A stretch of 64,000 nucleotides of DNA from Onchidella celtica (lineage: Eukaryota > Mollusca > Gastropoda > Systellommatophora > Onchidiidae). The notes under the pieces were generated by a model. It saw nothing but the letters and a program-made list of their open reading frames with translations, was not told the DNA's origin and searched no databases. The stretch lies in the NCBI GenBank assembly GCA_963931925.1, contig OZ007580.1, positions 8,201,634 to 8,265,633 on the forward strand, written 5' to 3'. The position numbers and the translations under genes are program-made. Shown here in pieces: positions 1,103 to 55,727 of this stretch (positions are counted from its first letter, which is position 1; each line of letters starts with the position of its first letter).

Positions 1103-1499
1103 TCTATTATATATTTCAGAAACTTGCAACCTTTGGCCTGACTGACTGACCAAACTATACATTCTTCAGGCTTTAAACTTAGCAGGAAGGTGACAATTGA
1201 GATAAGGAAGATGATGGCTATAATGAAAAGTTGTTTACTTCAAGCATGTATTTTTAATAAATAACAATGTTGAATTCTATATAACATCTGTATTTTTGCA
1301 TGTTTGTTTCGTAATATATAGTACCGTGCATGTCATAAAAAGTAACCGTATCAAGCGTTCAGTTTGGTGCGTAATGTTCTGGTGCGCATGAGTTCTGAAG
1401 CAAAACTGTAGCAGTTTATTACTTTTATTATACTGGGCGGGGGGGGGGGGGGGGATCACATGATTGTTTATTCTGGGCAATGCCCGGTAGCTCATCTAG
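1103..1499 (+). mobile_element. Helitron-like non-autonomous element (HeliN), copy A
   Basis: Starts TCTATTATATATTTCAG after an A and ends in a hairpin CTGGGCAATGCCCGG followed by TAGCTCATCTAG and then T. TC start, hairpin plus CTAG end, and A|T insertion site with no duplication are the Helitron hallmarks. A 16-G tract (1439-1454) lies just upstream of the hairpin. The same unit occurs inverted at 27632-28040. Confidence 0.85.
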
Positions 1500-14230: not shown

Positions 14231-17200
14231 CTATGTCAGGCCAGAGTTTTCTGCTATTGTATGACAGTACACAATACAGCCTGCTACTGTCACCCCCACT
14301 GTCTTGTGGGTCATCTCGGGAGAGAGGAAGACTAGGGGAAGGTAACCCTGAAGACAAATACCACACTGCCTTGTGTGTTGCTATGATAGCAAAGGCTATG
14401 GGAGTAAACCCAGACAGAAAATCAGGAGTGGAGACCCGAAGGTGGTTGTCAGGGAGAACTGCATCAAACTGGCTTCCAGCATCTCCTGCAGCCGGACAAG
14501 TTCCAAATGTATTGACCTGGTCTCTCCCTTGGGTTTAACTAGAATGGCAGAGAGAGGGGTGGTGCCTCTGGGCAAAGCACCATCTCTTAAAAATAGCCCA
14601 GGCAAGGCAGCAAAACGAGGAGGCGTTTGCTCGGGCTTGGCAAGCGTCTGTCTCTCCTCTATAAGCCCACCCATTTCCGATTTGGAGAGGACACTCCAGC
14701 CATCCGTTACGGATGGGCACAACACGGGAGGTGGCAGTTACCGGTGATAAGCTCAATCCATTTGGCGTACGGATGAGCGCCAGGGGTCCCCTCTGTCGGT
14801 GGGAGCGGCTTTTCAGCTGCATTGATCAACTACCGCCCGCCGTAACCTGGGCAGCCCCCAGGCAGTTGGGTGTTGTGCCGCCACGTCAGCCTGCTTCATA
14901 AGGTGGTTGGAGCTAGACCAAAAGTCAAAAAGCTGACGTAAAGTGTGCACCTGGCAAAAACAGAAAAATACTAAAACTTGGTACCTGGAACGTCAGAACA
15001 ATGCGCCCAGGCTTGCAACAGCAAGATCTCACTAATATTGACTCCATCAGGAAATCCCAAATTATTGATCGAGAACTTCAGCTACTAAACATCGACATCG
15101 CTGCCCTTCAAGAAACTCGACTCCCCGACTCCGGGTCAGTCAAAGAAGAAAACTACACCTTCTTCTGGCAGGGCCTTAGCAGCGAACAGCCGAGAATCCA
15201 CGGCGTGGGCTTAGCCGTAAAAAACTCCCTTATCAATTCGATCGCAACTCCAATTGGAGTGTCAGAACGCATCATGACACTCAGACTGAACACCCGGTCT
15301 GGTTTTACCAACATTATCTGTGTCTATGCCCCAACACTTACCTCCTCTGACGAAACCAAAGACATTTTCTACGAGGCATTGCAGAGGACTCTCCACAACA
15401 TCCCTCTCACCGAAGGCCTGCTAATTCTGGGTGACTTTAACGCTCGAGTGGGAGCAGATCACTCCGCATGGCCAAAGTGCATTGGGCACTTCGGCATTGG
15501 CAACATCAACGAAAACGGGCAGCGCCTTCTGGAGCTATGCTCCGTAAACTCATTATGTGTTACAAACACGTACTTTGACCTTAAGAGATGCCAAAGAACA
15601 TCATGGCGCCATCCCAGGTCTGGCCATTGGCCTCAATTAGATCTTATTCTCTCAAGGAGGAAGAGTTTGGGCTGTATAAAAATAACTCGTTCCCTCCACA
15701 GTGCTGACTGTGACACCGACCATGCACTGGTAGTCAGCAAAATCAAAATTTCGGCCAAGAAAATATACAGATCAAAAGCCCCTTCAATCCCTAAGATCAA
15801 TGTAACAGCAATCAGAGATGAATCAAATAGAAAGTCATTTGAAAAGTTATTTGCTGAAAGCATGGATAATGTCACCCAATGTGACTCGGTTGATGAAACA
15901 TGGAACACTCTCAGTTCAAAAATTCATGACTGTGCCATCAAGTCTTTTGGACAGCATAAAGTTTCAAACAACGACTGGGTAGCCCAGAACAGCGAAATTC
16001 TCCTACCTCTCATTGAGCAAAAGAAATCTGCTTTCAATGAGTATAACAAAAATTGCAATCAGAGTACAAAAACTTGTTTGAAAAATGCAAAAGCTAAACT
16101 TCAGCTGGAGGTAAGACGTTCCGCCAACAAATACTGGACAGACTTGTGTAACAGCATACAAGAGGCAAATGAAAAGGGAGATATGAAAACCGCCTTTAGT
16201 CAGATGAAAGTAGCTCTTGGGCCAATCATCACCAAAAGCGCCCCACTTAAGTCTGTAAATGGTGAACCCATCGCAGATAAAAATGAACAACTGAATAGGT
16301 GGGTAGAGCATTACTCTCTGTTGTATTCAACTGAGAAAAATATTCCACCAGATTTTGAGGAACACCTCCAAAAACTGCCAATAATGGCCGAACTTGACGT
16401 TGAACCTTCCTTAGTCGAGCTTTCCAATGCAATCGACCACCTGTCTGCTGGAAAAGCCACAGGAAGTGACAACATTCCTGCAGAGGTATTAAAAGACCTA
16501 AAAGGCCCATTATTACCACACCTGTATAATCTGCTACTGCAGTGTTGGAAAGAAGGCGTGATACCATATGATATGAGAGACGCCAAAATTGTCACACTTT
16601 ACAAGAACAAAGGAGACAAAGGCGACTGCAACAACTATCGAGGCATATCCCTCCTCAGCATTACTGGAAAGGCTTTTGCTCGCGTCATCCTCTGCCGCCT
16701 TCAACAACTGGCGGAAAAAGTCTTACCAGAAACACAATGTGGCTTTCGAAGCAAACGATCAACTATTGACATGATATTTGCACTTCGGCAAATCCAAGAA
16801 AAATGTAAAGAACAAAACAGGCCGCTTATAACATGCTTTGTGGACCTAACAAAGGCTTTCGACACCGTAAGCCGATCTGGCCTGTATGCAGTCCTTAAAT
16901 CCATAGGCTGTCCACCAACATTGCTAAAACTTATTGCATCCTTCCACACTGACATGAGGGCATGTGTCAACTTTGAGGGCTGCACATCCAATTCATTTGC
17001 TGTAAACAGCGGTGTGAAGCAGGGATGTGTTCTTGCTCCTACCTTATTTGGTATATATTTTGCAGCCCTACTCAAGAATGCCTTTGGTCAATGTTCAGGT
17101 GGAGTACTTATTAACACCAGAGTGGACGGCTCCATTTTTAATGTTGCCAGACTAAAAGCAAAATCTCGTACAGAGCATATTATGTTACAAGAGCTCCTCT

Positions 17201-18185
17201 TCGCAGATGATGCTGCAATCGTGGCCCACGATGAAACCACGCTCCAGGCTCTCATCAATAGCCTTGCCAAAGCCTGTGACAAATTCATGCTAAAGATCAG
17301 TGTCTCAAAAACTGTAGTTTTGACACAAGGCTTGAGAAACCCCAACCCAATCATGCTGAATGGCTCTCCTCTGGAGCAAGTGGGAAAATTCTGCTACCTA
17401 GGCTCAACCATCAGTGGTAGCACAGACATAACAACTGAAATAAATGCCAGAATAGGAAAGGCGGCCACAGCTTTTGGCAAACTCTCAAAAAGGGTGTGGA
17501 ACAATAGCAAGCTGACCATCAAAACAAAGGTACTCGTGTACCAAACTTGCGTCCTAAGCACCCTGCTGTATGGCTCAGAGACATGGACCACCTACTCCAA
17601 ACATGAAAGATCCCTCAACTCCTTCCACCTGCGCTGCCTACGCAAAATTCTCAAGATCAAGTGGCAAGACAGGATCTCAAATATCGAAGTTCTGAGCCGA
17701 GCCAACATTCCATCAACTCAGGCTCTCCTAGGCAAAAAAAGACTGCGGTGGCTTGGACATCTCCACCGTATGGAAAATGATCGCATCCCCAGACAAATTC
17801 TCTACGGGGAACTTGCTACTGGCAACCGACCCAGAGGTAGGCCACATCTGCGATTCAAAGACACTTGCAAGGTCACGATGAAAGCATTCAACATCGACCC
17901 CAATGAATGGGAGAACCTTGCAAATGATCGAAGCAGATGGAGACAAAAATTGCGCAGTGGCACGCTCGCAATAGACTTCAAGGCAAAAGAAACATACCTG
18001 ACAAAACGACAGAGGCGGAATGAAAACACTCGCCAAAGTGAACCCAAAAGACTGACCTGCAATCACTGCCATCGCACTCTCGGGTCAAACATTGGTAGAA
18101 TAAGCCACGAGAGAAGCTGTCAGTCAAAGTGAAAGTGAATATTCTAGCTGCTAAGACCGTCTGTAAAGACGCTAAAGGCCATGTA
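14231..18185 (+). mobile_element. Near-complete APE-type LINE (RTE-like), with TSD
   Basis: A 3955-bp element bounded by a perfect 15-bp direct repeat TATATATTACTAAGT at 14216-14230 and 18186-18200, read as the target-site duplication. It holds an approximately 0.7-kb 5' leader, one long endonuclease-RT frame and a short 3' UTR with no long poly(A). The target looks like the AT-rich tail of a SINE (CGCTATATAAATG, then ATTATTATTATC after the insertion). The intact frame and perfect TSD indicate a young insertion. Confidence 0.88.
15001..18132 (+). CDS. LINE ORF: AP endonuclease plus reverse transcriptase, 1043 aa
   Basis: Uninterrupted frame. The N-terminal APE-type endonuclease shows ALQETRL (about residue 34), GDFNARVG (about 143) and TDHALV (about 239), so its catalytic residues are present. 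The RT domain shows GSDNIPAEVLK, LYKNKGD..NYRGISLL, FVDLTKAFD (about 614) and FADDA (about 734). Downstream are LLYGSETWT and RRLRWLGHLHRM, typical of RTE-group LINEs. The C-terminus has a C-x2-C-x12-H-x3-C zinc knuckle at about 1020-1040. The conserved endonuclease opening GTWNVRT lies immediately before the first ATG; the same frame is open back to a TAG at 14914-14916 with no upstream ATG, so the true start is probably non-AUG or comes from a leader frame. Clade assignment (RTE versus RTEX) is tentative. Confidence 0.93.
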   Translation: MRPGLQQQDLTNIDSIRKSQIIDRELQLLNIDIAALQETRLPDSGSVKEENYTFFWQGLSSEQPRIHGVGLAVKNSLINSIATPIGVSERIMTLRLNTRSGFTNIICVYAPTLTSSDETKDIFYEALQRTLHNIPLTEGLLILGDFNARVGADHSAWPKCIGHFGIGNINENGQRLLELCSVNSLCVTNTYFDLKRCQRTSWRHPRSGHWPQLDLILSRRKSLGCIKITRSLHSADCDTDHALVVSKIKISAKKIYRSKAPSIPKINVTAIRDESNRKSFEKLFAESMDNVTQCDSVDETWNTLSSKIHDCAIKSFGQHKVSNNDWVAQNSEILLPLIEQKKSAFNEYNKNCNQSTKTCLKNAKAKLQLEVRRSANKYWTDLCNSIQEANEKGDMKTAFSQMKVALGPIITKSAPLKSVNGEPIADKNEQLNRWVEHYSLLYSTEKNIPPDFEEHLQKLPIMAELDVEPSLVELSNAIDHLSAGKATGSDNIPAEVLKDLKGPLLPHLYNLLLQCWKEGVIPYDMRDAKIVTLYKNKGDKGDCNNYRGISLLSITGKAFARVILCRLQQLAEKVLPETQCGFRSKRSTIDMIFALRQIQEKCKEQNRPLITCFVDLTKAFDTVSRSGLYAVLKSIGCPPTLLKLIASFHTDMRACVNFEGCTSNSFAVNSGVKQGCVLAPTLFGIYFAALLKNAFGQCSGGVLINTRVDGSIFNVARLKAKSRTEHIMLQELLFADDAAIVAHDETTLQALINSLAKACDKFMLKISVSKTVVLTQGLRNPNPIMLNGSPLEQVGKFCYLGSTISGSTDITTEINARIGKAATAFGKLSKRVWNNSKLTIKTKVLVYQTCVLSTLLYGSETWTTYSKHERSLNSFHLRCLRKILKIKWQDRISNIEVLSRANIPSTQALLGKKRLRWLGHLHRMENDRIPRQILYGELATGNRPRGRPHLRFKDTCKVTMKAFNIDPNEWENLANDRSRWRQKLRSGTLAIDFKAKETYLTKRQRRNENTRQSEPKRLTCNHCHRTLGSNIGRISHERSCQSK

Positions 18186-24624: not shown

Positions 24625-27230
24625 GTTAGCATAGTCAAAGCACTGATAAACTGTCTTCTAGAACTCACTTCTTATGTAAACCATTCTGTCCATAGTAAAG
24701 GAAAGGTAAAGAAGAATGAAAAAAATGTTTGTTGAACTGATGATGAAGATGTAGAATATAAAAATGCCAGTCTAGATTTTAAAACAGTGAACTGAGGCAG
24801 TTAATGACATACAAAAACTACTTTTATGTTTAGGTTTTCACATAAATGGAAGTGTGTACAGTCTCAGCCCATCAAGCCCTTAAGCACAGTGTACAGCTTC
24901 CATTTCAATGTTCAAACTTCTGCCATCACTTCCCACCAAGACAAGAGTACTATTTTTCACTTTTAGTACTTGCAAACAGAAAATGTTTTTTTAAGATGCA
25001 AATTTGGAAGCTAGATAAAATCACATATTATACGTCTGCCATGTGCCTGTATTTTTAATCTTGTCTTTTGGCAGACTTGTCTGAAAAGTCTGCTTGTAAT
25101 AGCAATGATGCACATCATGCATCATCACTGGATCATCAGTGAATGTAATCTGCAAAAAAGGAAAAAGAGCACTGAGAGTAAACCAGCTGCAAATCGTAAG
25201 ACTGTTAGTATAAAGTTTTCAGCTCATGCTTAGAAGTAGACATAGAATTTGAATGGCTTTTGTTAGATCCTGTGAAATCACTTTTTAATTTTCATGTCAG
25301 GATGTTGTGGCAAGAGTTCCCTGGGCCCGGTTTGAAGAAGAAAATGAGCATGTGTCAATCCCAGTGTATGATGATGGCTACTTCAATATGATAATGAGTA
25401 ATTTGACCTATTATGGAGTATCAATGACAGATTTGAAGAGACTTAAAAGGTAAAAAAAAAAACAACTTACACATAACTTACCAACTACAAGACATTCTTG
25501 TTTAATAGAAAGACATGGAAGTTGCTTGTGCAGATTATATTGTTATGGTAATGGTCAGAAATTAGTCATTGATGTTTATTCATATATCTGAACTGCGGAA
25601 TAAGAAGTTTACATTATATATTATAAGCAGTTACTTTCGCTATGAAAGTTTTGCAGCAGCCTAGTAGTTGTCTGTTCAGTCACAGATAAAAGGTATTTTC
25701 AAAAATGAACTGTCCACTTCATGTCACATTTTGCAGATTTTTTTGCAGGCCAATGATTTTTACTGAATTTCCACTGCCTTAATGTACAGCTCATGTTCTT
25801 TGTGTACATAGTATTATATGTGACATATTCTTGAATTTGATTTTGCAGACACAGTCAGTTTAAGCCAGGGCTGACTTCTGAGATGCAGAAAGAACTATAT
25901 TTATGTCTGAAAGTACTTGTTCATGCATTGGAACTATTTAATGTCACCTATTACGTGACTGGCGGTGCTATGATTGGTGTTTATCGTCACCATGGACTGA
26001 TCCCGTGGGATGATGATTTGGATATTGCGGTGAAAGTCTCTGACTGGCTGAAGGTGAAACAGGTATGGAAATACATAAAATAATTACAGTCAGTGCGCTA
26101 ACACAATAGCCTGACTCAGACTTAGGTCAATATTTAATTCATCTTCTATATTCTTTTTGTGTTCAAGCCCAATACTGTCATCTGAACATAAAACAAATGC
26201 ATTAATAATTCCCGCAAGGACATAGTAATGCTTTAAAGAACTGGCACTATACCAAAATATATTTCACTATGACAAAACAGTTCTTAGACTTTTCTGAAAC
26301 AAAGTGTCCAGACAAAGGCGAATTGCATCCCTTTTGCTGTTTGCACTTATTGACTAATAAGATATGTACAGTGAAACTTAGTTATAAAGAGATGTAATGT
26401 TCCACCAAAAATGTCTCATTATACCTGAGGTGTCGCTATTCCAGGAAAGAGTACCAAAAGCAAGGCAAAGGATAAAATACCCTGCTCCTAATGCCTAATG
26501 ATGTATTGAGAAAGCATAATTGTGGTGTTTTTGGTTAACCTTTTGACTGCGCCGTGGATGTACACCTTGCATCCTAAGGTCAATAGTGTGAGTGCGCTGT
26601 ATGCGTACACTAAAACCTGTAGTGAGAGTGTGCAGTCCAATGCACATGTAGCAGTGAAAAGGTTAAATAAGGATCATAGATGTACAAAAGGTTGTATTTA
26701 CTGTCTATTTTTCTTTCTTTCAGATCTTGACATGTATTCCAAACTTTGATCTTCAAGCCAATAATGGAATGATGTTCAAGTTCTTCTACAAAAAATCTCC
26801 GCTGTTGAATGGGGAAACATTTGTCCGTTTCCCATTTATTGATATTTTCCTTCTTAACGAAGATGCCCACCTAACCTGGACAGTAAAATTCTTCAAGAAA
26901 CATTTGTCTGTTTATAAGAAGTCAGACATCTATCCCGTTAAGAAACGTCCATATGGTGATATATTGGTGTCTGTACCCAGGACTATGGAGAAGATGGTTG
27001 TGACAGTATATAATGGAAAAGATAAGTGTGTAAGTAGAGACTATAATCATGTTGAGGGTAAAACTATTTATTTTTATAGGACAATTCCATGTGAAAGGCT
27101 GTTTGGTATATACCCATTTGTCAAGCGAACAAGAAGAGTTATTGGAGACAAAACTGTTCTTACCGAGTCACTGATGTTGGGTAAGAGGGAGATTAGTTCT
27201 TTTACGGTACATGAATATGATGAAATGTAA
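24418..27230 (+). CDS. LicD-family (fukutin-like) type II membrane protein, 4 exons, 358 aa
   Basis: Spliced gene: join(24418..24624, 25301..25449, 25849..26062, 26724..27230). All junctions are GT-AG and the frame stays open to TAA, giving 358 residues. Residues 1-3 (MKK) are followed by a hydrophobic segment at about 4-20, which reads as a signal anchor. Residues 156-178 carry the LicD signature: TGGAMIG, then RHHGLIPWDDD and LDI; this family uses the aspartates to bind metal and nucleotide. A second family-like motif, FPFIDIF, is at 226-232. Sequons at N103 and N150 fit a luminal catalytic domain. LicD/fukutin proteins transfer phospho-sugar or phospho-alcohol groups, and animal members act in the Golgi on glycans; the substrate here cannot be read from sequence. 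The start at 24418 is chosen because it sits just before the anchor; an acceptor-like CAG at 24396-24398 suggests a non-coding 5' exon upstream. FKTN and FKRP are longer, so I give no symbol. Confidence 0.88.
25301..25449 (+). CDS. LicD-family gene, coding exon 2
   Basis: Acceptor TTTTCATGTCAG|GATG and donor AAAAG|GTAAAA. Encodes residues 70-118 plus two bases of codon 119 (DVVARVPWARFEEE onward), including the N103-L-T sequon. Entry phase is 0 and exit phase is 2, matching the neighbouring exons. It has no ATG-initiated frame long enough to be noticed by a simple ORF scan. Confidence 0.85.
25849..26062 (+). CDS. LicD-family gene, coding exon 3 (catalytic signature)
   Basis: Acceptor TTTTGCAG|ACACAG and donor AAACAG|GTATGG. 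Encodes residues 119-190 and carries the whole nucleotidyltransferase-like LicD signature (TGGAMIG, RHHGLIPWDDDLDI). Exit phase is 0. Confidence 0.92.
26539..26662. mobile_element. 124-bp piggyBac-type MITE in LicD intron 3
   Basis: TTAA (26535-26538 and 26663-26666) flanks inverted ends CCTTTTGACTGC / GCAGTGAAAAGG, differing at one position. It is AT/GC-mixed and non-coding, and lies 60 bp upstream of the last LicD exon. Confidence 0.82.
26724..27230 (+). CDS. LicD-family gene, last coding exon
   Basis: Acceptor TTTCTTTCTTTCAG|ATCTTG. Encodes residues 191-358 (ILTCIPNFDL to HEYDEM) and ends in TAA. The FPFIDIF motif lies about 40 residues after the WDDD motif, the usual order in this family. 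AATAAA-type signals lie downstream at about 27545-27562, but in a low-complexity (AAAT)n stretch, so the poly(A) site is uncertain. Confidence 0.88.
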   Translation: MLTCIPNFDLQANNGMMFKFFYKKSPLLNGETFVRFPFIDIFLLNEDAHLTWTVKFFKKHLSVYKKSDIYPVKKRPYGDILVSVPRTMEKMVVTVYNGKDKCVSRDYNHVEGKTIYFYRTIPCERLFGIYPFVKRTRRVIGDKTVLTESLMLGKREISSFTVHEYDEM

Positions 27231-27631: not shown

Positions 27632-28040
27632 CTAGATGACCTACCGGGCATTGCCCAGAATAAACAATCATGTGCTCCCCCCCCCCTCTCTTTCTCTCTC
27701 TCAAATAACAAAATTAAGTTATAAACTACAGTCTTGCTTCAGAACTCATGCGCACCAGAAAACTACGCACCAAACTGAACACTCTTGATACGGTTACTTT
27801 TTATGACATGCACGGTACCATATAATTATTACGAAACAAACATGCAAAAATACAGATGTCACATAGCAATAAACACTGTTATTTTTTTAAAATACATGCT
27901 TGAAGTAAACAACTTTTAATTATAGCCATCATCTTCCTTATCCCAGTTGCCACTTTCCTGCCAAATTTAAGGCCTGAAGAGTGTATAGTTTGGTCAGTTA
28001 GTCATGCCAAAGGTAGCAAGTTACTGAAATATATAATAGA
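27632..28040 (-). mobile_element. Helitron-like element, copy B
   Basis: On the minus strand it runs from A|TCTATTATATATTTCAG to hairpin CTGGGCAATGCCCGG plus GTCATCTAG|T. It is alignable with copy A over its whole 409 bp, including the C/G tract near the hairpin. It lies 400 bp downstream of the LicD stop codon. Confidence 0.85.
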
Positions 28041-30061: not shown

Positions 30062-30463
30062 CCTTAATAATAAAAAAAAATATTGTGGAGCATTAATTCA
30101 TTGTGGTGCAGTTTTTACCCCCCCCCCCCTTTTTTTTTATTTGCTCAATGCTACAGCCTAAATAACTTTCAAAAATTATAAAATTAATTTTCTGAAGTGA
30201 CAACTAATTTAACAATATTTTTTTTTTTGTATTGCCCCATTGCATTTTTTAAATTCAGGTTTAAAGCAATCTTTTAAAAATGTTATGACAGTAAAGAAAG
30301 TACAATGATTTTGCAGGGGGGGGGGGGGGGGGGGAGGGGAGAGGTAGGGCGGCTCCTTTCATAAGCCCAACACATGGGTGACTATGTGAAACACTGAAAG
30401 TAGTGAAAGCAAGAAAAGTGAGAGCCCAGGTTCATTGCAGGCAATGCCTGGCACCTCATCTAG
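30062..30463 (+). mobile_element. Helitron-like element, copy C (diverged)
   Basis: The 5' part (TTAATAATAAAAAAAAATA, then ATTCATTGTGGTGCAGTTT) aligns with the Helitron nested at 44334. The 3' end has hairpin CAGGCAATGCCTG plus GCACCTCATCTAG. The first base and the base after CTAG no longer match the A|T rule, so it is older. A 19-G tract lies at 30316-30334. Confidence 0.65.
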
Positions 30464-37656: not shown

Positions 37657-40600
37657 CTGTAAATAAAAGCACATTAAATTAGCAAAAATTTTTAAAAAAA
37701 GAAAAAGACCATGGCAAATGCTCTGGGAAGCGATATCCTAGATCCAATCATTTTCACTGGTAATAACTTCTTTGAATAAAAATGAATAGAATCCTTTCAT
37801 CATTCAAGATGTCATTGCCTTGGAAATCCTTGCTGGTAAAATCTCAATGGCACCCATTTATCAGATATTCAAAGCAAGAGTTCTAAAGTTTCTATCAAGA
37901 TGAACAGAAAGAATTCCTGAAATAACTTGGTACTAGCTGAGGCTCACAAGCGTTGTCTGGTAGGAACCTCGAGTTACTGGAATGGCGAGACCTCAGGTAT
38001 GAGACAATTTTGGCAGAACATTCTTTATAACCAAATTCCACTGTATTGAATTCTTCAGTAATGCTGACAGGTATACAGAGATGTACTCTGAGTTTATATC
38101 TTCTAAATGAATGTTTATGCTTTATACTCATGCACATCTATATCCACAAACAAGCAGAAGCAAAAAGATCTGAGTCATTTATAAATATAGCTTCACAAAC
38201 TAAAGTCACTTACCAATTTTCTTTGTGCTTCCTCAATCTTCTTGTTATTTTCAATCATGATCTGTTCCAATTCTTCCCTTTTCTTACGTTCCTCCTCCTG
38301 AAAAAGTTGATAACAAGCAGCTAGAATAACGCTTAGAAAGTACCAGTAACTTTAAACATCGTTAAACTATTCAATAAAAGCATGCCAAAGCAAGGAAAAA
38401 AATCAAAACAGTAAATAAACTCACACTGACAGTTAAATACATAGCTTACTAGATAACTTAAACTAACGAGAAAAAAAAAAAGAAATCACAAAAATGAGGC
38501 AGTAACAGTTTGTGGACATGCAGATGATGATGAAGCTAAGGTTTAGTAGCAGACAAACCAACCAGGACACAAAGGTTGTATAAATTTTAAAATTCATGTA
38601 CAGCAAAAAAGCACCTTTTCACTTCCATTTGTCTAACCCTGGACTAGATGAAATCTTTGCCATACTATTATCTTCTTTCCCCAAAACAAACTGAACACAA
38701 ATATGTGCCCTCTCTTTTCAAACTTTGAAGGAGAAAAGCAAGGGAGTTCAGTCTCTTCAAAGACCATATACAGCAGTTTACTCTTCTACAAGAGATGACA
38801 TTTACCCCAACAAAAATGGTACATTCTTCCCCTTGATAGTGTGCCAAATTTTGTAATTAAAAAAAAAGAAAAGCAGAAGCCAAATTCTAGTTTTAATAAC
38901 TGGTACAGTTTTTGTCTAGCACTCAATAGAGGAAACCACAAAAAATTACAGTCTACATCTTTCATTCAGTACTATACAGTCATTGGCTTGAAGAAAAGAC
39001 TGAATTTTCTAAAAGGGGACAGTGAGAAAAATGCAGAGCATGTCCACCCACTCTTGAAGAAAGCTGAAACAAAGTTGGAATTAGTGAAAGCAAATGAGGA
39101 TTTGAAAGAGTCTGTGGATAAAGGAAAATATCAGACCTACCAATATTAATCAGGTTTAACAAATCAGGTGGAAAAAAAATTGTTACCAGTGGAAACTAAC
39201 TCCTTACAATGAATCAGTATGAAGTAATGGATGACGAAAAAGAAAAAAATTCTGATGAAATGATTATGGTTTATGAACTTATGTTAATAACAATTATGTA
39301 CAAAGAATGACTCAAAAAAAAAAAAAAAATCTGAGTAAAAGACTGCAGCAGACATAATTTACATACCGAAAATTTGGCGTACCTTGAGTAGGTAAAGATT
39401 CCATTCCAACACAGGCTGCAAACTTGGCAACATATTTAACACACTTGCACTTCAGGGCTATGATAATTAATAACCATGACAAACTACCCCAACTCACAGA
39501 GGGTAATTTTTCAAATGGGGTTTTGGGGCATTTCCATGAGTTCTGTAACATTAAAAGTAGTTCTCCCCATGACATCTCCTTCCCCTCATCTCATGCCGTC
39601 CCTTCATAATAATTAAATGTCAATACAAAGATATCAATGAGCCCCTCTTCATCTTTGAAATTGCGACTCCCAACAACTTCAGTATAGCAATAAACAGTCA
39701 TTTGTTTACATGTATTTCGATTCCATAGACATGAAAACTGGTCTGGACACCTTTCCCAACAGCTTTACTTAATTTAGTTTGACAGCAGCATGACAGTTAT
39801 CCCCATGCATACATGGCATACCTGCTGGCTGCTAAGACGATACATATATAAAATTTCTATTCCAATTTCAGATGATCAGATGATAAGTACTCAAAAGGCC
39901 AAACTACTCTGACAAAGTCCTTGCATCTCTTTCATTTCTTTTCACTTTTTCCTTACGAAAAAAAAACAACAGTAATAATAAAGGGTGGTTAAAACTGATA
40001 AATGAAGAGAAAAAATGGGGGGTGATAAAAGTTGCAGACCAGTGAAGTAAAAGCAATATATGAGATGCAGTTGATCTGGATCATATCTCTGACAGGCTTC
40101 ACCACTCCAAACTCATCTCTTCCGAAGTTTGTTCATCTATCTTACATATCATGCTACAATGAACTAATCGTCAATTCACTGTACTCGCTTCCACTTCCCA
40201 AATGATTATAAACTGGTAACTGTTTCATTAGGTGACAAACCATTACAGCAATTTGACCATCCGCTCCCCACCCACTGGCAGAAAGCAAAATTTAAATCAC
40301 ACTTTATTCTTTTATTTTTCGATGCTATACACCAAAGAAACATGCGACTCTCAGGAACAAACAACAAAAAAAAAAAGAAAAGAATGAAAGGTAATAACTA
40401 ATAGCCCCAGGAAATCAATGCAACGTCCCTTCAGTATATCTCCACAACCAGGGAAGAATAACCCTTACTAATTCTTAGTGTGAATCATCTGCTGTTTCTC
40501 ACAGCTTTTGATACATATATACCTATTGGTCAACGCCAATAAAACTGCTATGTTTTCTTGCCTATTACATATCAGAATAAATTTCTGCATTGCAAATCAT

Positions 40601-43600: not shown

Positions 43601-46600
43601 AAGGTCAACTAGCACTTTTGCAGTACTACTTACCAATAATTTACTAAAAGTGCTAAGTGATAGTAGCAAAGTAAAACTGTGGAGATATATATACAGATGC
43701 CAACAAGGACATGAATTCAGCAGCAGCCATGCACAGGGGTCACTGTGGAGCCATCAGAACATCGATCTGATGTGAGACACATTCAGAAGGCTTTCCTGAG
43801 AAATTGATTCTTTCCAGCATGCCACTAACTTGTGGTAGAATTTGGCCTAGATTCTAAATCCAGCCTTGATCTGCTTAGCATATCTTGCCAGACTGGAGTC
43901 AAATTATATGCAAAAAAGGGAGTACCACATTTAAGTTACACAACTTTGACTGGCATCTATTTCATGAATGTTGTGTGTTAATTGCTAAACCACACCTGTC
44001 ACTGTCAGAAGGAGTACCACATGAATTACACAACTTGAGTCGGGCACATATTTTATTTTCGGAGTGTTAACTTAATTGCACGCATTTGTTGTAAAAAAAC
44101 ATCCATCTAGAGGACTAACTCACCAAGGGGCACAGACTAATAAAATACCCAGACTGGATGAGCCCATTGTGTGACATCACAAAACAGCGAAAGGTCATGA
44201 ACCATCCGCCATTTTAGGTTTAAGGCAGCGACCGACGCTTCAGCATAGCTACAATTTTTAATGATACTATTTTGATGCGTACTGCACGCGGAAGTTTGGT
44301 TCCGCACCAAGAAAATAATACATGTGCAACCAATCTTATTATAAAAAAAAATAGTGGCGGGAGTAATTCATTGTGGTGCAGTTTTAGCCCCTTTTTTGCT
44401 CGACCCTATGGCGTAAATGACAATTTCAAAACTTATAAAATTAATTTTCTTCAGTGTCAACTAATCCAGTCCAGTCGCTTTTGTATCGACCGATTGGGTT
44501 GATTCAAGTTTCAGGTATTTTTAAGTAAAAAGTTGTAAAAATGTAAAATACAATGACCTTTGTTTTGGCTCCCTGTGGTAAGCCCACCGCACCGGAAACG
44601 ATGTATTAATACGCATTCAGTTCGGTGCGCACCATTTCCCTACCCAGAAAGGAATGCGTAGTGCTTTGGTGCACATGACATCTGTAGTAAGACTGCAGAC
44701 TATGGAAAACTTTCTAGACCAAAAAGAGAGAAAGAGAGACGGTACGGTGGGTTCACAGGTTTGTCCCGGATAATGCTGGGAACTTCATCTAGTCTTGACA
44801 AATAAAAAGAAATTTCTACTGCAGATAGAACTAGAATCGGATTTTCCCGAGCGGCGGCCATGTTGGTTATACGGTTGCCGCTCGGGAAATTCCGTAAAAA
44901 ATGACACAGCCCGAAGCTCGTGTTTCCAGTCTGGTTAATTTATTGGTCTGTGCCAAGGGGGCGCCGATTCCTGCAACCCCCCCACTGATGGATGCTCCTA
45001 AAGTTGCGTCCTTGTAATATCCTTAAATAAACAGTGTGTCTCATGAACTCATATGAACCACGCATCTATACTATATATATTTGTGGACTTGAGATTTTTC
45101 GTTGCAAAAGGCTTCTGAACCACTCAACACTCAGACTTCAAATTTTATATGGTGCTTCAGAATGGATGTAAAGGTGCACAGTTTTTAATAGAAGTCTCAA
45201 ATCGGTGTAGTTTTTTTAATTGGAAATTTATTGTTTCGCCATCATTTAGATCTATTTCGAGTCATGGTTCGCCATTTTAAGGTTTCGTTATCACTTCCTG
45301 CGATGTGTTCACTATCAAACACACTAACCCGTGCGCAAATCATGCTGTTGTACAGGGTGCGCAGGGTGTCAACTCACAAAGGCAGAGCAGTAAGACTTAT
45401 TTAAAAACAAACAAACAAAAATAAAATAAACAAATAGGAACAGGCCAGATGAAGCAGGTCCATAATAACCACCCAGAACTGAAACCAATATTCAAACCGA
45501 TTTATCCCGGGCAGGGCCGGGGACCTCAGCTAGTTTACCATAAAAACATCCATCTAGAAGACTAGTCACTAGCTTGCCAGTGGGGTGCTCCCCCCCCCCC
45601 CCCCACACACTCATGATCTTGCATTCTTCCTAGGTCTAGATTCTCGTCTAATCTAGATCTAGGCTAGACAGAGAGGCCTATAGCCTAATATAATTAACCC
45701 TCAACCTGCCCAGGCCACCCATGTTTCGCAAGCGCTCACGCCGCATGGGCGGCAAAAGTCGGCAAGGTCAAGCTGACCGCGCCACGCGCAAGCCATATAT
45801 TTACGCATCAGGTCACTGACCTTTTTGAGACGTAACCATCGTGTTATTGTTCGCTGTATCTCTTCTAAATCAAAGGCATTGTGACATGGACATGTTAACC
45901 AGTGAACCACTGGTCGGAATCACTAAGACTAAGCTTTCAAAGGCTCTCCCCACACTTTCAAAAGATGTAACATCGACACGCGAACTGTTGCTCAACAAAT
46001 CTGCAATACTATCTCATTTTCTCACCAGCTGACCACCATCTGGAGTTGTCTGTATCTAAGAACCAATCAGATACAAGCTCTGAAATAATCTTTGCCCCAA
46101 ATGCCCACATTGGTTTATTAATATTAGTATGGGTCAATCAGGATGAAACCATTTGTGCAGGGCTTGGGAAGGCGTGGCTAGTTATCATGCTTCGTTCTCA
46201 CGAATACTACCGAGCTGTCAGTTTGGAATCATAAGTCAGATCATTGGTTAGAGACTGACAGACTAAGGCAGGTTTCACAAAAATGACCCTCCGAGATAAC
46301 TTAAAGCTACTCTCTCATTTATTAACTCCTCAAATGGTCTTTGCATGCTGTGTTTGATATCACAATATTTGTTATGAAATCAAGAAATAAAAAACTTAAA
46401 ATGAAGACTTTGACTTTCATGTTGTGTTTGTTATGTGTTGTTTTTGGTCCCGCGGGTGATCAATTCTGACCGGCCCTATTTCCCTCTTTTTGAGAGGCAT
46501 GTGAAAATTCGCCACTACAAGTGACATTATATGTAGCCAACAAGTTCAGTTTCTGGTCACAGGTAACTAGTAAGACCAAAATTTCAGTATTAAAATGAAA

Positions 46601-55362: not shown

Positions 55363-55727
55363 CATAGACTAATAAATTAACCAGACTGGAAACAGGAGCT
55401 TCGGGCTGTGTCGTTTTTTACGGAATTTCCCAAGCGGCGACCGTATAACCAGCATGGCCGCCGCTCAGGAAATTCCGATTCTAGTTCTATCTGCAGTAGA
55501 AATTTCTTTTCATTTGTCAAGATTGGTTGTACATGTATTAATTTCTTGGTGCGGAACCAAACTTCCGCCTTCAGTAGGCGCGTCAAAATGGTATCATTCA
55601 AAATTGTAGCTGTGCTGAAGAGTCGGTCGCTACCGTAAACCTAAAATGGCGGATGGTTCATGACCTTTCGCTGTTTTGTGACGTCACACAATAGGATCAT
55701 CCAGTCTGGGTATTTTATTAGTCTGTG
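55363..55727. mobile_element. Same MITE family, uninterrupted copy
   Basis: 365 bp in the opposite orientation to the copy at 44131. TIRs CATAGACTAATAAA and TTTATTAGTCTGTG. Flanks GTCAGTCC and GTCAATAC agree at six of eight bases, an eroded 8-bp TSD. It contains a TGACGTCA palindrome near 55679. Confidence 0.85.

What the first reader, a model, noticed from the sequence alone, without database searches (positions are those of the whole stretch)
44131..44952. Helitron insertion resolved to the base by a paralogous empty site
The MITE at 44131-44952 is split by a 459-bp element running TCTTATTATAAA...CATCTAG. The uninterrupted MITE at 55363-55727 carries the joined sequence (CCAATCTTGAC, reverse complement). 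This shows insertion between A and T, a TC start, a CTAG end and no target duplication, all Helitron rules. It also orders events: the MITE first, the Helitron later.
Basis: partly seen in the sequence, partly recalled or inferred. Interest (0 to 1): 0.72.

Follow-up and report, generated by a model that had tools for sequence, protein, structure and literature searches.

The report
Short Helitron nested inside a MITE
A 459-base jumping gene of the well-known rolling-circle (Helitron) type sits cleanly inside another mobile element; four likely relatives in the same stretch support this reading, and it is an ordinary, well-resolved example rather than something new.

Summary
The MITE at 44131-44952 differs from its paralog at 55363-55727 by one 459-bp gap plus one 2-bp indel; 339 of the other 363 aligned bases match. 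The insert can be read as TCTTATTATAAA...TTCATCTAG (44334-44792) between A and T. One step was overlooked: TCTT stands at both junctions, so this pair alone allows five breakpoints, one of them a 4-bp target duplication. Four further copies in the window decide: 1103-1499, 27632-28040 (-), 30062-30463, 45065-45533. All five end in CTAG with a predicted hairpin finishing 10-12 nt before the end, and leave-one-out profiles recover each held-out end. None of the four sisters shows a duplication at its stated ends, and they carry TCT or CCT at the 5' end as element sequence, so the second TCTT is best read as chance. It is a short non-autonomous canonical Helitron. No Rep/Helicase match in 112 window ORFs. 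'MITE sequence first, Helitron later' is supported; that the Helitron entered at this locus is not shown. The host genome could not be searched (11 calls unanswered). New member of a known kind; low interest.

The parts
44334..44792 (+). Focal non-autonomous Helitron (copy D), 459 bp, TCTTATTATAAA...TTCATCTAG, host A before and T after
   Evidence: Single 459-column gap against the paralogous MITE; junction table; 3' end recovered by a profile of the other four copies, E 0.00059
44764..44781 (+). Predicted 3' hairpin of copy D: 6-bp stem with one G-T pair and a 6-nt loop, ending 11 nt before the 3' end; weak when taken alone
   Evidence: DNA fold of 44758-44792 (40 of 200 shuffles fold as well)
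44131..44952 (+). Host MITE interrupted by copy D; inverted termini beginning CACAGACTAATAAAATACCCAGACTGG
   Evidence: Inverted repeat I1; terminus search
44123..44130 (+). Left copy of the MITE's 8-bp target duplication CCAAGGGG
44953..44960 (+). Right copy of the MITE's 8-bp target duplication CCAAGGGG
55363..55727 (-). Uninterrupted paralog of the MITE = paralogous empty site of copy D
   Evidence: Alignment, 339 of 363 aligned bases identical
1103..1499 (+). Helitron copy A, 397 bp, TCTATTATATAT...GCTCATCTAG
   Evidence: A and B align over their length at 87% (415 columns) and diverge outside; junctions
27632..28040 (-). Helitron copy B, 409 bp, same subfamily as A
30062..30463 (+). Helitron copy C, 402 bp, like D in its 5' part; its CC start and right flank C depart from the rule; 5' end set by alignment with D
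   Evidence: C-D match at 75% over 144 columns; junctions
45065..45533 (+). Helitron copy E, 469 bp, TCTATACTATAT...CCTCAGCTAG, 112 bp downstream of the MITE
   Evidence: 3' end found by profile, held-out E 0.0016; 5' end chosen by eye by its TC motif

Best explanation
The 459-bp insert is a short non-autonomous Helitron that was mobilised in trans by a Rep/Helicase enzyme encoded elsewhere in the genome. The enzyme nicks at the 5' TC, a strand is displaced up to the 3' hairpin and CTAG, where it terminates, and the strand is joined between A and T of the target without duplicating it. Here the target was ...CCAA|TCTTGAC... inside a MITE. Shown here: insert edges (to within 4 nt from the empty site, then fixed by relatives), sister copies, end motifs, no duplication at the sisters' stated ends. 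Inferred from published Helitron work (PMC4778049): the enzyme, the rolling-circle steps, the role of the hairpin.
For: Single clean 459-bp gap against a paralog. Four further copies share the 3' end, and each held-out copy is recovered, ending exactly at CTAG, by a profile of the other four: E 1.2e-8 (A), 7.3e-8 (B), 3.7e-5 (C), 5.9e-4 (D), 1.6e-3 (E) in a search of the window. Junctions: CTAG end 5 of 5, A before 5 of 5, T after 4 of 5, TC start 4 of 5, no duplication at these ends 5 of 5. All five 3' ends fold a hairpin that finishes 10-12 nt before the terminus. Published rules: 5' TC, 3' CTRR, palindrome about 11 bp from the 3' end, A|T target, no duplication (PMC4067079 passages; PMC4778049 passages). 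AC targets, as in copy C, were among the commoner exceptions for Helraiser.
Against: TCTT is shared at both junctions of the focal copy; such a match has a chance of about 1.3% at an AT site in this window. Hairpins are weak singly: 10, 7, 39, 40 and 22 of 200 shuffles fold as well for A to E, and a 51-nt stretch of D gave z -0.79. Copy C breaks two rules (CC start, C after). The 5' end of E was picked by its motif and that of C by alignment, and A and B are close relatives, so the A and TC counts are not five independent cases. The sisters were found by their likeness to D or to one another at the 3' end, so the shared CTAG is partly a condition of finding them. No Rep/Helicase seen; no genome-wide copies could be counted.
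Confidence: 0.93

Rival explanations
1. A different DNA element, ATTATAAA...CATCTAG, that made a 4-bp TCTT target duplication on integration.
For: TCTT stands on both sides of such an insert and the empty paralog has one TCTT.
Against: Copies A, B, C and E share one base between element start and right flank and have no duplication at their ends. A, B and E start TCT and C starts CCT at the matching place although their flanks differ, so these bases belong to the element. No inverted repeat of 12 nt or more joins the insert's ends, and no inverted match beyond 5 nt lies between its first 30 and last 90 nt.
Confidence: 0.04
2. A Helentron-associated element (HINE/DINE-1 type), which inserts at TT and has subterminal inverted repeats.
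For: G or GA tracts lie upstream of the 3' hairpin in copies A-D, and DINE-1 type elements often carry microsatellites (PMC4067079 passages). Among the allowed breakpoints in D one falls between T and T.
Against: No subterminal inverted repeat found: the longest exact inverted match between first 30 and last 90 nt is 4-5 nt in 5 of 5 copies, as in shuffles, against 11-15 bp in the published families. A and B have A before and T after, not T-T. Ends are TC and CTAG.
Confidence: 0.03
3. A question of history, not of kind: the MITE carrying the Helitron moved to this locus as one unit, so the Helitron is older than this MITE insertion.
For: The 8-bp duplication of the filled MITE is perfect, that of the empty paralog is 6 of 8, so the filled insertion may be the younger one.
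Against: Nothing direct; the simpler history is insertion into a resident MITE.
Confidence: 0.2

Closest known systems
Canonical animal Helitrons (Helibat/Helraiser of bats)
   Same: 5' TC, 3' CTAG, hairpin about 11 nt before the 3' end, A|T target, no duplication (PMC4778049 passages)
   Different: Only 397-469 bp, no Pfam match in the ORFs scanned; the sequences were not compared with Helibat itself
Maize Helitrons (HelA type)
   Same: The first nine positions of the 5' search consensus, TC[TC][CA]TA[CT]TA (PMC2267711 passages), fit copy E (TCTATACTA) and fit A and B at 7 of 9; AA in the middle of the hairpin and a CTAGT end in several copies
   Different: E does not follow the consensus after those nine bases; plant elements often with captured gene pieces
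Helentrons / HINE / DINE-1
   Same: 3' stem loop, short length, microsatellite-like tracts
   Different: Those have subterminal inverted repeats and TT targets (PMC4067079 passages); not found here

Membership tests
Canonical Helitron | 5' end TC | tested here: met
   4 of 5 copies; copy C has CC. E's 5' end was chosen by this motif.
Canonical Helitron | 3' end CTRR (CTAG) | tested here: met
   5 of 5 copies; partly a condition of how the sisters were found
Canonical Helitron | Hairpin about 11 nt before the 3' end | tested here: met
   Predicted in 5 of 5, finishing 10-12 nt from the terminus, but 7 to 40 of 200 shuffles fold as well; shared position and profile are the stronger evidence
Canonical Helitron | Insertion between A and T | tested here: met
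   4 of 5 A|T, copy C A|C; for D, A|T is one of five equivalent breakpoints against the empty site
Canonical Helitron | No target site duplication | tested here: met
   None at the stated ends in 5 of 5; D alone is ambiguous by 4 nt. Only D has a firm empty site.
Canonical Helitron | No terminal inverted repeats | tested here: met
   Longest exact inverted match 4-5 nt in 5 of 5, as in shuffles
Canonical Helitron | Autonomous partner with Rep/Helicase in the genome | not testable with these tools
   No Helitron or helicase Pfam match at E 0.01 in 112 window ORFs; the genome search did not complete (11 calls)
Helentron/HINE | Subterminal inverted repeats of 11-15 bp | tested here: not met
Helentron/HINE | TT target | tested here: not met
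   A, B and E read A|T
4-bp-duplication DNA transposon | Duplicated target on both sides in each copy | tested here: not met
   Absent in A, B, C and E at their stated ends

The most novel reading that the evidence does not exclude
The four-base match between the Helitron's 5' end (TCTT) and the bases after the target A is not chance: this Helitron's enzyme reads several target bases that resemble the element's own 5' end, so target choice is guided by sequence match beyond A|T.
Probability: 0.05. Interest if true: 0.4.

Novelty: new member of a known kind. Interest (0 to 1): 0.15.

Why it matters
It is a neat reference case: an empty site plus four likely relatives in 64 kb fix the ends of this short Helitron group, so the genome can be annotated with it. 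It also shows that an empty site alone can leave junctions ambiguous and that relatives can settle them. It does not change what is known of Helitrons.

Tried and rejected
Genome-wide copy number and an autonomous partner: the genome search did not answer in any of 11 tries of the same request, so nothing is claimed about the rest of the genome, and the species was not identified.

Relatives in public collections: exact-match scans for the 3' end motif gave 0 stretches in viral contigs and one in genome contigs. That one lies inside a long ORF of a Chlamydiae MAG contig, and the 8000 bases held have no blastn match to the window at 1e-3; rejected as chance. These collections hold few eukaryotic sequences, so the absence says little.

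A second paralogous empty site, for copy E: E's joined flanks match 44069-44117 (score 51, best of 1000 shuffles 35), but most of that score is a 23-nt repeat wholly on one side. The part that crosses the junction is 9 nt (CACGCATTT); 27 of 2000 shuffles and 16 of 2000 random window 24-mers do as well. Kept as tentative only.

A candidate sixth end at 37933 (-) scored E 0.57 and 0.073 to 0.82 in the three held-out lists (top eight rows each) that showed it; not counted.

Papers: search listings with the start of each abstract and passages of PMC4778049, PMC4067079 and PMC2267711; no paper was read whole. Searches for Helitron with TCAGCTAG or TCATCTAG found 0 papers.

Full report
What was checked. 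Alignment gives one 459-column gap in the empty copy and one unrelated 2-bp indel; of the 363 other aligned bases 339 agree. The host MITE is sound: 30-nt inverted termini at 90%, four occurrences of its terminus in the window where 100 shuffles give none, and a perfect 8-bp duplication CCAAGGGG. The empty paralog has GTATTGAC and GGACTGAC at its edges, 6 of 8 alike.

The filled site reads CCAA TCTT ATTATAAA ... CATCTAG TCTT GAC and the empty site CCAATCTTGAC. TCTT stands at both junctions, so five breakpoints are equivalent. One gives TC...CTAG between A and T with no duplication; another gives a 4-bp duplication. The pair alone does not decide. In this window 1.3% of AT sites are followed by CTT, so the Helitron reading asks for a mild coincidence.

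Sister copies decide it. Four more copies lie in the window: A 1103-1499, B 27632-28040 on the minus strand, C 30062-30463, and E 45065-45533 (found; ends). A and B are 87% alike over 415 columns and unlike outside, which fixes their ends to within the two bases TA shared before TC and the T after CTAG. C and D are 75% alike over 144 columns near their 5' ends, and D is 71% like B over 87 columns near the 3' end. The 3' ends are common to all five: a profile of the last 40 nt of four copies finds the fifth, at its exact CTAG, in all five trials, E 1.2e-8 (A), 7.3e-8 (B), 3.7e-5 (C), 5.9e-4 (D) and 1.6e-3 (E). A and B are close relatives, so their two trials are easy ones.

Junctions. A: ata|TCTATTATA...CATCTAG|tgg. 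B: tta|TCTATTATA...CATCTAG|ttt. C: gca|CCTTAATAA...CATCTAG|ctg. D: caa|TCTTATTAT...CATCTAG|tct. E: gca|TCTATACTA...CAGCTAG|ttt. CTAG in 5 of 5, A before in 5 of 5, T after in 4 of 5, TC in 4 of 5; no duplication at these ends in 5 of 5, and element start and right flank share 1 base in A, B, C and E but 4 in D. Caveats: the 5' end of E was found by eye by its TC motif and that of C by aligning it with D, so these do not count as independent for A and TC; and the sisters were found through their 3' ends or through likeness to D. Since TCT or CCT opens the element where flanks differ, the first TCTT in D is best read as element sequence and the TCTT of the target as a chance match.

Hairpin. DNA folds of the last 35 nt put a stem finishing 10-12 nt before the 3' end in all five. 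Taken singly they are weak: 10, 7, 39, 40 and 22 of 200 shuffles fold as well (A to E), and a 51-nt stretch around D's end gave z -0.79. The shared position and sequence carry more weight than the energies.

How it works. Passages of the Helraiser paper (PMC4778049) report TC joined to A and CTAG joined to T, a 19-bp palindrome 11 nt from the 3' end that is not strictly required but serves as a termination signal, circular intermediates, and exceptions to AT targets with TT, AC and AA the most prominent; copy C's A|C fits the last class. I infer that D moved the same way, using an enzyme from elsewhere. No Rep/Helicase was seen: of 146 stop-to-stop ORFs of 75 aa or more, 121 were not low in complexity; I gave 112 of these 121 to Pfam, leaving out nine that overlap larger frames or repeats. 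At E 0.01 the hits were the reverse transcriptase ORF's domains, LicD, ARGLU (2 members) and four weak others. Shorter or broken coding pieces would be missed.

Rivals. A 4-bp-duplicating transposon fails on the sisters' flanks and on the lack of inverted termini. A Helentron-type element fails on the missing subterminal inverted repeats (longest exact inverted match 4-5 nt in 5 of 5) and on A|T rather than TT targets.

Order of events. The Helitron entered a MITE sequence, so that MITE sequence is older. Whether it entered at this locus or elsewhere, the composite then moving here, is open; the perfect duplication around the filled MITE leaves room for the second.

Limits. The host assembly was never searched, so copy number, partner and species remain unknown.

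Verdict. A sound observation and a sound interpretation with one overlooked ambiguity, now resolved as far as the window allows. A new member of a known kind. Confirming element ends by paralogous empty sites is established practice (PMC4067079 used it for Helentrons; passages).

Noticed in passing
window 45065-45533: A second short Helitron (copy E) lies 112 bp downstream of the split MITE; its first nine bases, TCTATACTA, fit the published maize Helitron 5' consensus.
   Followed up: yes
window 44069-44117 against 45046-45064 joined to 45534-45564: A 23-nt direct repeat (22 of 23 alike) sits left of the MITE and right of copy E; with E's flanks joined the likeness extends across the junction, perhaps a diverged host repeat that is an empty site for E. 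Tentative.
   Followed up: partly
window 1435-1454, 27676-27702, 30316-30349, 44725-44739: G or GA tracts lie upstream of the 3' hairpin in four of five copies (A-D), not seen in E; possible microsatellite growth inside these Helitrons.
   Followed up: no
window 44338-44465 against 30067-30208; 44655-44738 against copy B: Copy D shares its 5' part with C and part of its 3' half with A and B, whose 5' parts show no match to D: shared ends with unlike interiors.
   Followed up: partly
window 14917-18132: A 1071-aa open frame with endonuclease and reverse transcriptase domains, probably a non-LTR retrotransposon.
   Followed up: no
window 26667-27227 and about 38031-38321 (places guessed): Among 112 window ORFs there are Pfam matches to LicD (1) and ARGLU (2 members), in line with an animal genome; the call does not say which ORF gave which match.
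   Followed up: no
window 37933-37972 (-): A weak sixth Helitron-like 3' end ending in CAGCTAG (E 0.57; 0.073 to 0.82).
   Followed up: no
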